From: Streptomyces catenulae
GTDB lineage: Bacteria > Actinomycetota > Actinomycetes > Streptomycetales > Streptomycetaceae
Assembly (NCBI RefSeq): GCF_000718015.1
Contig: NZ_JODY01000007.1
Coordinates: 62,001 to 126,000 of the forward strand
Reading direction: 5' to 3'
DNA length: 64,000 bases
Part shown: positions 35,197 through 39,685 of the stretch, piece by piece
Layout: the number at the start of each line of letters is the position of its first letter
How positions within the stretch are numbered: the first letter of the stretch is position 1
Program-made: the position numbers and the translations under genes
Notes under the pieces: generated by a model
The model's input: only the letters and a program-made list of their open reading frames with translations
Told to the model about the DNA's origin: nothing
Databases searched by the model: none

Positions 35197-36015
35197 TCAG
35201 CCCCGCCGCTCCTGTTTCTGCTTGCACTCCACACAGAGGGTGGCCCGGGGGAACGCCTGCATCCGTGCCTTGCCGATCGGGTTCCCGCAGTTCTCGCAGA
35301 GGCCGTACGTGCCCGCGTCCAGGCGGCCCAGCGCGCGTTCGGTCTGGAGCAGCATCTCGCGGGCGTTGGAGGCCAGCGCCAGCTCGTGCTCGCGGGTGAT
35401 GTTCTTGGTGCCGGTGTCCGCCTCGTCGTCCCCCGCGCCGTCCCCGGAGTCGCGCATCAGCCCGGCGATGGCGTCCTCGGAGGCCACGATCTCGGCCCGC
35501 AGCCGTACCGTCTCCCCCAGCAGCCCGGTCCGCGCCTCGTCGACCTCCTCCGGGGTCCAGGGTTCCTCGCCCGGCCGGACGGCCAGGTCGTCGGGGGCGG
35601 CGGCCACGAGCGCCGTGGGTACCGCCGGGTCCGTACCGTGCGCCGCGGCCGCGGTCTTCTTCGCCACCACCGTCTTGGCTCCCGTCTTCCTCGCCGTCGC
35701 CTTCGCGGCGGTCGCCTTCTTCGCCGGGGCCTTGGCCACGGTCGTCCTGCGCGCCGTACTCTCCGTGGCCGCCGCCTTCTCGGCAGGGGCCTTCCTCGCC
35801 GCCGCCTTCTTGGCCGGGGCCTTCTTGACCGCCGCCTTCTTGGCCGGGGCCTTCTTCGCCGCGGTCTTCCGCGCCGCGGCCTGCTTCGCCGGGGCCTGCT
35901 TCTCCGGGGTGCCCGAAGTGGGCGCACCGGCCTCCTGGGGAGCGGCCGGACGTGCCGTACCGGGCTCCTCGGCGGGTGCCGTGCTCTTCTTCGCGGCGGA
36001 CTTCTTCGCCACCAT
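35197..36015 (-). CDS. DksA/TraR zinc-finger protein with Lys/Ala-rich N-terminal tail
   Basis: A 272-aa protein. Residues of about 1-125 are a low-complexity tail of KKAPAKKAA-type units, like the tails of histone-H1-like and HupS proteins. The C-terminal part has a coiled-coil helix pair and a C4 zinc site, CENCGNPIGKARM then LCVECKQ, as in DksA/TraR. ATG 36015 has GAAGGGG about 10 bases upstream. DksA proteins bind RNA polymerase through the coiled coil; the basic tail suggests extra DNA or RNA contact. The role in this organism is unknown. Confidence 0.85.
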   Translation of the reverse strand: MVAKKSAAKKSTAPAEEPGTARPAAPQEAGAPTSGTPEKQAPAKQAAARKTAAKKAPAKKAAVKKAPAKKAAARKAPAEKAAATESTARRTTVAKAPAKKATAAKATARKTGAKTVVAKKTAAAAHGTDPAVPTALVAAAPDDLAVRPGEEPWTPEEVDEARTGLLGETVRLRAEIVASEDAIAGLMRDSGDGAGDDEADTGTKNITREHELALASNAREMLLQTERALGRLDAGTYGLCENCGNPIGKARMQAFPRATLCVECKQKQERRG

Positions 36016-36028
36016 GGCCGCGACCCCT

Positions 36029-36040
36029 TCACATATGTGA
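36029..36040. promoter_or_regulatory. AT-rich palindrome before the DksA/TraR-like gene
   Basis: TCACATATGTGA is a perfect 12-base palindrome 13 bases upstream of the ATG, inside an unusually AT-rich patch that also holds TTCGCGAA (36046-36053). It may overlap the promoter or the start of the transcript. Confidence 0.45.
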
Positions 36041-36251
36041 TTTAGTTCGCGAATCGTGACGGGAACGATAAATCGCCGCACGGGCCGCGGCAATGGGACG
36101 CACCGCCCGTACCCCCGCTCCGCCCCGCTCCCACCCCGCCGCCGCCCGGCACACCACGGCCCCGGCGGCCCGCCCGCCCCGGCCGCGTTCGGGTGGCCCC
36201 CCGCGGCCGGGGCCACCGGAAATCCGGTCGGTCACCGTCCCGGCCGCCCCG

Positions 36252-36263: not shown

Positions 36264-36529
36264 AGCGACAGGCGTCGATGGGACGAGTAGCGTCGTAGGC
36301 AGCCAGCAGCGATCCGGGGACGGTGGGAGCCCGGAGGCGTGCGCGACGTGAAGATCACCCCGGAGCCGCCGGAAGAAAGCCCGCGCAGCGCCGCGGGCGA
36401 GTAGAACCGGCAGCGCGACCCCAATGAGGGGGCGGTGGCAGGGCCACCGCCAAGGAGGGTGGTACCGCGGGAGCAGCGCTCTCGTCCCTCCGGACGGAGA
36501 ACGCAGCAGGTGTCCGCCGGAGGAACCCG
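36264..36529 (+). promoter_or_regulatory. Isoleucine T-box riboswitch (translational)
   Basis: The leader carries the T-box core TGGTACCGCG at 36460-36469. The Stem I region has the loop-E-like AGTA (GACGAGTAG) and GAA opposite, followed by the specifier ATC (Ile) at 36354-36356. A 9-bp stem at 36431-36451 precedes the core. GGAGGG (36454-36459) can pair with CCCTCC (36486-36491) around the core as the antisequestrator. Alternatively CCTCCGG (36487-36493) pairs with CCGGAGG (36517-36523), which hides the ileS ribosome site. Uncharged tRNA-Ile should favour the first structure and open translation. Confidence 0.93.
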
Positions 36530-39500
36530 ATGAGTGAGCAGCCGCAGTACCGCCAGGTGCCCGCGCAGGTCGACCTACCCGCCCTTGAGCACGCCGTGCT
36601 CGATTTCTGGCAGGAACAGAAGGTCTTCGCCCGCACCCTCCAGCAGTCCGAGGGCCGGCCCGAGTGGGTCTTCTACGAGGGCCCGCCGACCGCCAACGGC
36701 ATGCCCGGCGCCCACCACATCGAGGCCCGCGTCTTCAAGGACGTCTTCCCCCGCTTCCGCACGATGCAGGGCTACCACGTCGACCGCAAGGCCGGTTGGG
36801 ACTGCCACGGCCTCCCCGTCGAGCTGGCGGTCGAGAAGGAGCTGGGCTTCAACGGCAAGAAGGACATCGAGGCGTACGGCATCGCCGAGTTCAACGCCAG
36901 GTGCCGTGAGTCGGTGACCCGGCACACCGACGCCTTCGCCGAGCTGACGACCCGCATGGGGTACTGGACCGACCTCGACGCCCCGTACCGCACCATGGAC
37001 CCCGACTACATCGAGTCGGTGTGGTGGTCGCTGAAGGAGATCTTCACCAAGGGCCTGCTGGTCGAGGACCACCGCGTCGCCCCCTGGTGCCCCCGCTGCG
37101 GCACCGGCCTCTCCGACCACGAGCTGGCGCAGGGCTACGAAACGGTCGTCGACCCGTCCGTCTACGTCCGGCTGCCGCTGACCTCCGGCCCGCTCGCCGG
37201 TGAGGCCGCCCTCCTGATCTGGACGACCACGCCCTGGACGCTGGTCTCCAACACCGCGGTCGCCGCCCACCCGGACGTCACCTACGTCGTCGCCACCGAC
37301 GGCCAGGAGAAGCTGGTCGTCGCCGAGCCGCTGCTGGAGAAGGCGCTCGGCGAGGGCTGGACCGCCACCGGCCGGTCGTTCACCGGCCGCGAGATGGAGC
37401 GCTGGGCCTACCGCCGCCCGTTCGACCTCGTCGAGCTGGCGGGCGCCAACTTCGTCGTCAACGCCGAGTACGTCACCACCGAGGACGGCACCGGTCTCGT
37501 CCACCAGGCCCCGGCCTTCGGTGAGGACGACCTCAAGGTCTGCAGGAGCTACGGCCTGCCGGTGGTCAACCCGGTCCGCCCCGACGGCACCTTCGCCGAG
37601 GAGCTGCCGCTGGTCGGCGGCGAGTTCTTCAAGAAGGCGGACGAGGCGCTCGTCGCCGACCTCGACGCCCGCGGCCTGCTCTTCCGTCACCTCGCCTACG
37701 AGCACAGCTATCCGCACTGCTGGCGCTGCCACACCGCGCTGCTCTACTACGCGCAGCCGTCCTGGTACATCCGCACCACCGCTGTCAAGGACGCCCTGCT
37801 CCGCGAGAACGAGAACACCAACTGGTTCCCGGACTCCGTCAAGCACGGCCGGTTCGGCGACTGGCTGCAGAACAACATCGACTGGGCGCTGAGCCGCAAC
37901 CGCTACTGGGGCACCCCGCTGCCCATCTGGCGCTGCGAGGAGGGCCACCTCACCTGCGTCGGCTCGCTCGCCGAGCTGACCGAGCTGACCGGCACCGACC
38001 AGTCCGGCCTCGACCCGCACCGCCCGTTCATCGACGCCGTCACCTTCGGCTGCACCCACGAGGGCTGCACGCTCACCGCCACCCGCGTCCCCGAGGTCAT
38101 CGACGCCTGGTACGACTCGGGCTCGATGCCGTTCGCGCAGTGGGGCTACCCGTACCGCAACAAGGAGCTGTTCGAGAAGCGCTACCCGGCGCAGTTCATC
38201 TCCGAGGCCATCGACCAGACCCGCGGCTGGTTCTACACGCTGATGGCCGTCGGCACCCTCGTCTTCGACAAGTCGTCGTACGAGAACGTCGTCTGCCTGG
38301 GCCACATCCTCGCCGAGGACGGCCGGAAGATGTCCAAGCACCTGGGCAACATCCTCCAGCCGATCCCGCTGATGGACCAGCACGGCGCCGACGCGGTCCG
38401 CTGGTTCATGGCGGCCGGTGGCTCGCCCTGGTCCGCCCGCCGGGTGGGCCACACCACCATCCAGGAAGTCGTCCGCAAGACCCTGCTGACGTACTGGAAC
38501 ACCGTCGCCTTCCAGGCGCTCTACGCCCGCACCTCGAACTGGGCGCCGTCCGCCGCCGACCCGGCCCCCGCCGAGCGCCCGCTGCTCGACCGCTGGCTGC
38601 TCGGCGAGCTGAACACCCTCGTCGAGGGCGTCACCGAGGCGCTGGAGGCGTACGACACCCAGCGCGCCGGAAAGCTGCTGTCGTCCTTCGTCGACGACCT
38701 CTCCAACTGGTACGTGCGCCGCTCCCGCCGCCGCTTCTGGCAGGGCGACCCGGCCGCGCTGCGCACCCTGCACGAGGTGGTCGAGACGGTGACGCGGCTG
38801 ATGGCGCCGCTGACGCCGTTCATCACCGAGCGGGTCTGGCAGGACCTCGTCGTACCGGTCACCCCGCAGGCGCCGGACTCGGTGCACCTGGCGTCGTGGC
38901 CGCTGGCCGACCCGGGGCTGATCGACCCGGAGCTGTCCACGCAGATGCAGCTGGTGCGCCGCCTGGTCGAGCTGGGCCGGGCCACCCGCGCCGAGTCCGG
39001 CGTGAAGACGCGTCAGCCGCTGTCCCGCGCGCTGGTCGCGGCGCACGGCTTCGCCGGTCTCTCCGACGACCTGCGCGCGCAGATCGCCGAGGAGCTGAAC
39101 GTCACCTCGCTCGCCGCCCTCTCCGACATGGGCGGTTCGCTGGTCGACACCTCCGCCAAGGCCAACTTCCGGGCGCTGGGCAGGCGGTTCGGCAAGGGCG
39201 TCCAGGCGGTCGCCAAGGCGGTCGCCGCCGCCGACGCCGCGGCGCTCTCGCTGGCGCTGCGCGACGGTGAGGCCACGGTCGAGGTGGACGGCGAGACCGT
39301 CACCCTCACCCCGGACGAGGTGATCATCACCGAGACCCCGCGCGAGGGCTGGTCGGTGGCGTCCGACGCCGGTGCGACCGTCGCCCTGGACCTGGAGATC
39401 ACCCCGGAGCTGCGCCGCGCCGGTCTGGCCCGTGACGCGATCCGCCTCATCCAGGAGGCGCGCAAGAACAGCGGTCTGGACGTCTCCGACCGGATCGCCC

Positions 39501-39685
39501 TGCGCTGGGAGACCGCCGACGGGGAGCTGCGCACGGCCCTGGCCGAGCACGCCGCCCTGATCTCCGACGAGGTGCTGGCGACCGCCTTCACCCCCGAGCG
39601 GGAAGCGGCCGACGACACCGCCGCCTACGGCGAGCTGTTCACGGACGAGCCCCTGGGCCTCTCCTTCCGCCTCCGCAAGGCGTGA
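36530..39685 (+). CDS. ileS: Isoleucyl-tRNA synthetase, long (type 2) form
   Basis: A 1051-aa class I synthetase with Rossmann core, an editing (CP1) domain inserted at about residues 190-400, an anticodon-binding domain (about 660-850) and a C-terminal region. KMSK is intact (GRKMSKHLGN, K600-K603). The HIGH position instead reads GAHH (residues 60-63 in GPPTANGMPGAHHIEARV). The length and sequence fit the eukaryote-like IleRS2 group, which is associated with mupirocin resistance. GGAGGA precedes the ATG and is part of the T-box switch. A strong terminator follows. Confidence 0.97.
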   Translation: MSEQPQYRQVPAQVDLPALEHAVLDFWQEQKVFARTLQQSEGRPEWVFYEGPPTANGMPGAHHIEARVFKDVFPRFRTMQGYHVDRKAGWDCHGLPVELAVEKELGFNGKKDIEAYGIAEFNARCRESVTRHTDAFAELTTRMGYWTDLDAPYRTMDPDYIESVWWSLKEIFTKGLLVEDHRVAPWCPRCGTGLSDHELAQGYETVVDPSVYVRLPLTSGPLAGEAALLIWTTTPWTLVSNTAVAAHPDVTYVVATDGQEKLVVAEPLLEKALGEGWTATGRSFTGREMERWAYRRPFDLVELAGANFVVNAEYVTTEDGTGLVHQAPAFGEDDLKVCRSYGLPVVNPVRPDGTFAEELPLVGGEFFKKADEALVADLDARGLLFRHLAYEHSYPHCWRCHTALLYYAQPSWYIRTTAVKDALLRENENTNWFPDSVKHGRFGDWLQNNIDWALSRNRYWGTPLPIWRCEEGHLTCVGSLAELTELTGTDQSGLDPHRPFIDAVTFGCTHEGCTLTATRVPEVIDAWYDSGSMPFAQWGYPYRNKELFEKRYPAQFISEAIDQTRGWFYTLMAVGTLVFDKSSYENVVCLGHILAEDGRKMSKHLGNILQPIPLMDQHGADAVRWFMAAGGSPWSARRVGHTTIQEVVRKTLLTYWNTVAFQALYARTSNWAPSAADPAPAERPLLDRWLLGELNTLVEGVTEALEAYDTQRAGKLLSSFVDDLSNWYVRRSRRRFWQGDPAALRTLHEVVETVTRLMAPLTPFITERVWQDLVVPVTPQAPDSVHLASWPLADPGLIDPELSTQMQLVRRLVELGRATRAESGVKTRQPLSRALVAAHGFAGLSDDLRAQIAEELNVTSLAALSDMGGSLVDTSAKANFRALGRRFGKGVQAVAKAVAAADAAALSLALRDGEATVEVDGETVTLTPDEVIITETPREGWSVASDAGATVALDLEITPELRRAGLARDAIRLIQEARKNSGLDVSDRIALRWETADGELRTALAEHAALISDEVLATAFTPEREAADDTAAYGELFTDEPLGLSFRLRKA

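What the first reader, a model, noticed from the sequence alone, without database searches (positions are those of the whole stretch)
36707..36718. IleRS with GAHH in place of the HIGH signature
Seen: in ileS the class I signature position reads GAHH (residues 60-63, GPPTANGMPGAHHIEARV), while canonical IleRS has HYGH or HIGH there; the first and third residues look swapped. KMSK is intact and the gene is the only ileS seen. Known: long IleRS2 enzymes resist mupirocin, and from memory a GXHH variant has been reported to raise this resistance strongly. Inference: this organism's IleRS is functional and highly mupirocin-resistant, perhaps because soil competitors make such inhibitors.
Basis: partly seen in the sequence, partly recalled or inferred. 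Interest (0 to 1): 0.72.

Follow-up and report, generated by a model that had tools for sequence, protein, structure and literature searches.

The report
Known mupirocin-resistant type isoleucyl-tRNA synthetase
This Streptomyces housekeeping enzyme really has a swapped active-site signature that is already published as a cause of extreme mupirocin resistance, and its sampled close relatives share it, so the finding is correct but ordinary, apart from a second change in the same active site (KMSKS to KMSKH) that we did not find discussed.

Summary
ileS (36530-39685, +, 1051 aa) encodes GAHH at residues 60-63 (DNA 36707-36718), aligned without gaps to HVGH of Thermus and Priestia IleRS2 and to the engineered GVHH of PDB 8c8w. 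It is the only match over the IleRS cut-off in the 7.05 Mb genome; three related class I synthetase loci there keep HxGH.

It is not new. Brkic et al. 2023 describe G/AXHH in many IleRS2 enzymes, name Streptomyces griseus IleRS2 as a carrier, and tie the motif to up to about 1000-fold mupirocin resistance. Cvetesic et al. 2016 measured Ki 10 mM for the S. griseus enzyme, which is active and rescues mupirocin-inhibited E. coli. A pattern for the swap hits 147 of 147 genomes of the order and a stricter one 140 of 196 of the class; the 36 class enzymes sampled form one clade. So it is old and vertically inherited, not an adaptation of this strain. A likely translational T-box precedes the gene.

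Within the class it goes with the swap (138 of 196 genomes have both, 4 one only, 54 neither); outside the class it was confirmed once. Whether it matters is untested.

The parts
36530..39685 (+). ileS, type 2 isoleucyl-tRNA synthetase, 1051 aa
   Evidence: TIGR00392 894.6 bits (cut-off 621.4); PF00133, PF08264, PF19302; best solved-structure relatives are IleRS2
36707..36718 (+). GAHH, swapped class I signature motif (canonical HxGH), residues 60-63, at the start of the first helix after strand 48-50 in the model
38327..38341 (+). KMSKH, second class I signature loop with His instead of Ser at position 5 (residues 600-604)
37529..37531 (+). Asp334, candidate post-transfer editing aspartate, same residue number as D334 of S. 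griseus IleRS
   Evidence: function of D334 from PMC4861432
36266..36492 (+). T-box leader (below the Rfam gathering score)
   Evidence: RF00230 48.6 bits, E 3.1e-8, model positions 1-219 of 219, gathering score 93
36487..36523 (+). candidate sequestor hairpin: CCUCCGG 36487-36493 pairs with CCGGAGG 36517-36523, covering the Shine-Dalgarno GGAGG 36519-36523; the CCCUCC stretch can pair instead with GGAGGG of the T-box
   Evidence: fold z -3.08 for 36478-36535, and the alternative pairing in 36450-36494 with z -2.14

Best explanation
The gene is the ordinary, sole housekeeping isoleucyl-tRNA synthetase of a Streptomyces, of type 2 (IleRS2), belonging to the already described G/AXHH ('hyper-resistant') branch. 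By the published mechanism the third-position His (here His62) takes over the catalytic role of the missing first His in isoleucine activation; [quoted passage not shown] Shown here: the sequence, type, gene uniqueness, conservation and descent. Shown by others on other enzymes: catalysis and resistance. Inferred: that this enzyme behaves the same.
For: Gapless alignment of GAHH to HVGH and to engineered GVHH; best fold match of a predicted model is 8c8w, the hyper-resistant GVHH mutant; sole IleRS over cut-off; editing Asp334 present; G/AXHH, its kinetics and structures in PMC10485003; S. griseus enzyme Ki 10 mM, kcat 20.6 per s, complements E. coli (PMC4861432); 147 of 147 genomes of the order hit the pattern and 140 of 196 of the class the stricter one; one clade for the 36 class enzymes sampled, SH-aLRT 100; T-box leader as reported for actinobacterial ileS (PMC1262725, passages).
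Against: No biochemistry on this enzyme. X is Ala here, whereas the Fig. 1 legend of PMC10485003 lists X as Ile/Val/Leu/Met/Tyr (the main text says 'hydrophobic' and calls the S. griseus motif 'the same'). The predicted model has pLDDT under 50 at 592-608 and rmsd 8-9 A to its best matches, so active-site geometry could not be checked. The IleRS2 text signature HYPFE of PMC4861432 is not matched strictly (here GYPYR).
Confidence: 0.94

Rival explanations
1. The swap is a recent, strain-specific adaptation to mupirocin-like inhibitors made by soil competitors.
For: The authors of PMC4861432 proposed such selection for S. griseus, which shares soil with pseudomonads.
Against: Present throughout the sampled order (147 of 147) and in most of the sampled class (140 of 196), one vertical clade, also in lineages named as aquatic or skin-associated genera (habitats recalled). 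Selection far back in time is not excluded.
Confidence: 0.03
2. GAHH marks a degraded or repurposed IleRS-like protein, such as the biosynthetic transferase SbzA, not a translation enzyme.
For: Loss of the first His of a motif essential in most class I synthetases; IleRS-like copies with other roles exist in Streptomyces (SbzA, PMC6331615 and PMC12945691, passages).
Against: It is the only IleRS over cut-off in the genome, next to genes with FtsZ, SepF, DivIVA and signal peptidase II domains, with a T-box; SbzA by contrast has HYGH and AMSKA.
Confidence: 0.01
3. The KMSKH loop, not only GAHH, is a functional part of the hyper-resistant or catalytic design in Actinomycetes.
For: Near-complete co-occurrence in the class at genome level (138 of 196 both, 2+2 one only, 54 neither); mupirocin's nonanoic acid lies between the HxGH motif and this loop in PmIleRS2 (PMC10485003).
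Against: Co-occurrence reflects two inferred changes only, so it is not independent evidence; 15 of 17 GxHH enzymes sampled outside the class have Ser there; S. alkaliphilus has GTHH with KMSKS and G486 GTHH with KMSKN; D. radiodurans ALHH is active and hyper-resistant (its loop sequence was not seen).
Confidence: 0.25

Closest known systems
Streptomyces griseus IleRS2 (SgIleRS; Cvetesic et al. 2016, PMC4861432)
   Same: Same genus, type 2, stated in PMC10485003 to carry the non-canonical motif; editing Asp at the same number (D334).
   Different: A different species; its sequence was not read here. A named proxy, S. fimicarius (close to S. griseus by recall), is 86% identical to the window's enzyme with GAHH and KMSKH.
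G/AXHH IleRS2 of Brkic et al. 2023 (D. radiodurans ALHH; engineered GVHH P. megaterium IleRS2, PDB 8c8w)
   Same: First and third positions swapped; type 2; best structural match of the model.
   Different: X is Ala here; loop is KMSKH here against KMSKS in PmIleRS2.
HYGH IleRS2-like enzymes of other Actinomycetota
   Same: Same phylum and in part same class; same enzyme activity by family.
   Different: Separate deep clade (SH-aLRT 100) with HxGH and Ser/Arg/Lys at loop position 5; not nested with the Streptomyces enzyme.
MupA / MupB (NCBIfam NF000257, NF000258)
   Same: Related IleRS2 sequence (767.2 and 746.8 bits).
   Different: Far below their 1900-bit cut-offs; this is a chromosomal-type housekeeping gene, not an acquired plasmid copy (plasmid origin of ileS2 in S. 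aureus from PMC10485003).
SbzA, IleRS-like protein of SB-203208 biosynthesis
   Same: IleRS homologue of Streptomyces linked to self-resistance.
   Different: Second copy in a biosynthetic cluster, HYGH and AMSKA motifs. Here no second IleRS over cut-off was found; SbzA itself was not searched for.

Membership tests
Isoleucyl-tRNA synthetase | TIGR00392 equivalog score over cut-off | tested here: met
   894.6 bits against 621.4
IleRS2 (type 2) | Closer to IleRS2 than IleRS1 along the whole length, type 2 C-terminal domain | tested here: met
   884.6 bits over residues 20-1020 to PmIleRS2 8c8w against 351.7 bits over 9-787 to PmIleRS1 8c9f; PF19302 at 851-1027; fold ranks 1-12 are IleRS2 or yeast/Candida enzymes, IleRS1 from rank 13
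IleRS2 (type 2) | HYPFE signature of the eukaryote-like group (PMC4861432) | tested here: inconclusive
   Aligned stretch reads GYPYR; only Y and P conserved
G/AXHH non-canonical IleRS2 | Gly/Ala at first and His at third and fourth motif positions | tested here: met
   GAHH at 60-63
G/AXHH non-canonical IleRS2 | X hydrophobic (main text) or one of Ile/Val/Leu/Met/Tyr (Fig. 1 legend) | tested here: inconclusive
   Ala fits the text, not the legend's list. Of 53 full-length GxHH enzymes X is T 26, V 12, A 6, L 4, I 2, S 2, F 1, so the listed range looks too narrow
G/AXHH non-canonical IleRS2 | Millimolar mupirocin Ki with retained catalysis | not testable with these tools
   Known for S. griseus and D. 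radiodurans enzymes from the literature only
Canonical KMSKS loop of class I synthetases | Ser at fifth position | tested here: not met
   KMSKH
[quoted passage not shown]
   RF00230 48.6 bits, E 3.1e-8, below gathering 93; sequestor pairing predicted; 7 of 17 relatives' loci matched at E <= 0.01
MupA/MupB acquired resistance synthetases | Score over the 1900-bit exception cut-off | tested here: not met
   767.2 and 746.8 bits

The most novel reading that the evidence does not exclude
In Actinomycetes the hyper-resistant IleRS2 carries two signature changes, GXHH and KMSKH, on the two sides of the cleft where mupirocin's tail lies. The loop change may be a later refinement that restores ATP handling or adds resistance on top of the swap, making these enzymes a doubly rewritten class I active site; and X in GXHH is not confined to the listed residues but is most often Thr, also Ala or Ser.
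Probability: 0.25. Interest if true: 0.4.

Novelty: already known. Interest (0 to 1): 0.15.

Why it matters
It confirms that a published resistance-type active site is the standard translation enzyme across the sampled order, so mupirocin insensitivity there is expected to be ancestral. If the KMSKH loop proves to matter, it would show that both class I signature motifs can be rewritten in one essential enzyme, and nature offers enzyme pairs for studying how.

Tried and rejected
Second IleRS copies in the genus: two extra pattern hits, G405 C9 (L202) and G406 C19 (L203), lie in open frames of 116 and 317 aa unlike IleRS and were rejected as chance. The permissive pattern includes chance matches (its reversed-pattern control also hits some genomes), so the class rate rests on the stricter, where the control columns are zero; no strict count for the order was made. 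Loop pattern: the G267 hit lies in a 302-aa open frame without synthetase features, and three hits (G457 C50, G561 C46, G452 C87) are not this loop; all rejected as chance. Nesting of the Streptomyces enzyme within the HYGH actinomycete enzymes: rejected by the tree (quick method, LG+G4, SH-aLRT only, both motifs masked, midpoint root, rows chosen by me to spread over families). KMSKH as a prerequisite of GxHH: rejected, since 15 of 17 GxHH enzymes sampled outside the class have KMSKS. Structure model: 12 sequences, mean pLDDT 74.8, under 50 at the KMSK loop, used only for fold rank and helix position. Rows dropped: of 75 stretches fetched L138 (contig end), L194 (no IleRS frame) and L179 (429-aa fragment) were left out, leaving 72 plus the window. 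In one search three of 80 named loci (L225, L233, L276) gave no row and L251 a wrong one; read them: L225 and L233 GAHH, L251 GTHH, each with MSKHLGN; L276 lacks the N-terminus and has MSKHVGN. S. griseus's own sequence was not obtained; the one named-genome scan returned other species.

Full report
What is there. The window lies in a 7,045,102-base genome of 90 contigs. The ORF 36530-39685 on the + strand encodes 1051 aa, and bases 36707-36718 read GGCGCCCACCAC, GAHH, residues 60-63. NCBIfam calls it ileS at 894.6 bits against a cut-off of 621.4. Aligned to solved structures the stretch PTANGMPGAHHIEARV runs without gaps against HVGH of T. thermophilus and P. megaterium IleRS2 and against the engineered GVHH of 8c8w.

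Type and uniqueness. The protein is type 2: 884.6 bits over nearly the full length to PmIleRS2 8c8w and 351.7 bits over residues 9-787 to PmIleRS1 8c9f, with the C-terminal domain PF19302. A predicted model (12-sequence alignment, mean pLDDT 74.8) matches PmIleRS2 structures at ranks 1-4, first the GVHH mutant 8c8w, and IleRS1 only from rank 13; TM-scores are about 0.72 with rmsd 8-9 A, so only the fold rank is used. The motif opens helix 61-79. It is the only match over cut-off among 10 in the genome. Other class I synthetase loci read there keep HLGH, HVGH or HMGH, and KMSKS where the loop was read, so the change is not a genome-wide habit. Neighbours carry Pfam domains of a Na/H exchanger, pseudouridine synthase, signal peptidase II, DksA/TraR zinc finger, DivIVA, SepF, PF01168, PF02578 and FtsZ.

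What is known. Brkic et al. 2023 (PMC10485003; I saw the outline, parts 1-3 of 7 of the text, the discussion and found passages) report G/AXHH in 86 IleRS2 sequences of their tree, state that S. griseus IleRS2 has the same motif, show that motif exchange changes mupirocin Ki by up to about 1000-fold, and give the structural account: the third His takes over from the first in catalysis and, in a model, clashes with mupirocin. Cvetesic et al. 2016 (PMC4861432; passages) give Ki 10 mM for S. griseus IleRS and rescue of E. coli at 100 uM mupirocin.

Distribution. A permissive pattern for the swap hits 147 of 147 genomes of the order (its listing was cut). The 15 of these outside the genus all show GTHH; the genus rows displayed show GAHH, apart from chance hits elsewhere in the same genomes. 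A stricter pattern hits 140 of 196 genomes and 61 of 81 genera of the class. In a phylum draw the permissive pattern hits 157 of 296 genomes, some by chance, and the HxGH pattern 54 of 296; all 23 class-mates outside the genus in that draw hit the HxGH pattern, which tells against calling the swap universal in the class. I fetched 75 stretches chosen from these hits to spread over families, and 73 rows (72 plus the window) went into a tree with the two motifs masked. The 53 GxHH and 20 HxGH enzymes separate at one deep branch (SH-aLRT 100), and the state changes once on the tree. The 36 GxHH enzymes of the class form one clade (100) with the window among its genus. The swap is thus inherited, not local. 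X varies: T 26, V 12, A 6, L 4, I 2, S 2, F 1 of 53, 15 changes on the tree, wider than the Ile/Val/Leu/Met/Tyr of the 2023 legend.

The second signature. The loop reads KMSKHLGN. In the 73 rows all 36 class enzymes of the GxHH type have His at the fifth position (33 KMSKH, 3 RMSKH); of 17 GxHH enzymes outside the class 15 have Ser, one Arg, one His; of 20 HxGH enzymes none has His. At genome level in the class, patterns for GXHH and for MSKHxGN both hit 138 of 196 genomes; two have GXHH only (G571, where the gene runs off the contig, and G486, which reads KMSKN), two MSKHxGN only (hits too near contig starts for the first motif to be held), 54 neither, which were not examined one by one. In the phylum draw the loop pattern hits 14 of 296: the 12 genus members, G003 whose ileS has GAHH and KMSKH, and G267, a chance hit. 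Among 80 named loci, 70 of the 77 rows a script read have GxHH with His at position 5; the other 7 are four Ser, one Asn, one Arg and one misread row, and three more His cases were read afterwards. The exceptions include S. alkaliphilus, GTHH with KMSKS. Two changes explain His on the tree, so the association is descent, not repeated coupling. A search of 5.39 million papers for KMSKH listed two, both titled on inorganic nanomaterials (listing only); figures and supplements were not searched, and the 2023 alignment figure may show it. Since mupirocin's tail lies between the HxGH motif and this loop in PmIleRS2, a role is plausible but untested.

Regulation. A T-box leader lies at 36266-36492 (48.6 bits, E 3.1e-8, below the gathering score 93), and 36478-36535 folds into a hairpin hiding the Shine-Dalgarno box (z -3.08), as reported for actinobacterial ileS (PMC1262725, passages). 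Of 17 relatives' loci 7 matched the family at E <= 0.01.

Verdict. Correct observation, known phenomenon, normal for the lineage. What remains open is whether KMSKH does anything. Prior-art searches.

Noticed in passing
38327-38341: Second signature loop KMSKH instead of KMSKS, shared by the class-level GxHH clade and not mentioned in papers found.
   Followed up: yes
L165/L166, L167/L168, L169/L170 (G281, G154, G231): Three genomes of one family outside the class hold both a GVHH and a HYGH IleRS, which fall in the two deep clades of the tree: a natural two-enzyme state.
   Followed up: partly
36266-36523: T-box leader with a candidate Shine-Dalgarno sequestor upstream of ileS.
   Followed up: partly
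35197-36216 (-): DksA/TraR zinc-finger protein with a long Lys/Ala-rich N-terminal part resembling histone-like HC2 (27.6 bits, below its cut-off of 40), divergent from ileS.
   Followed up: no
L245: S. alkaliphilus ileS reads GTHH with KMSKS, unlike the other named Streptomyces read: a natural comparator.
   Followed up: no
L225: In the public contig of S. jumonjinensis the ileS frame is interrupted about 190 codons after the motif; probably an assembly error in an essential gene.
   Followed up: no
L149 (G501) and L184 (G198): Within one family and genus of the class one genome has the GTHH enzyme and another the HYGH enzyme, suggesting replacement of one type by the other.
   Followed up: no
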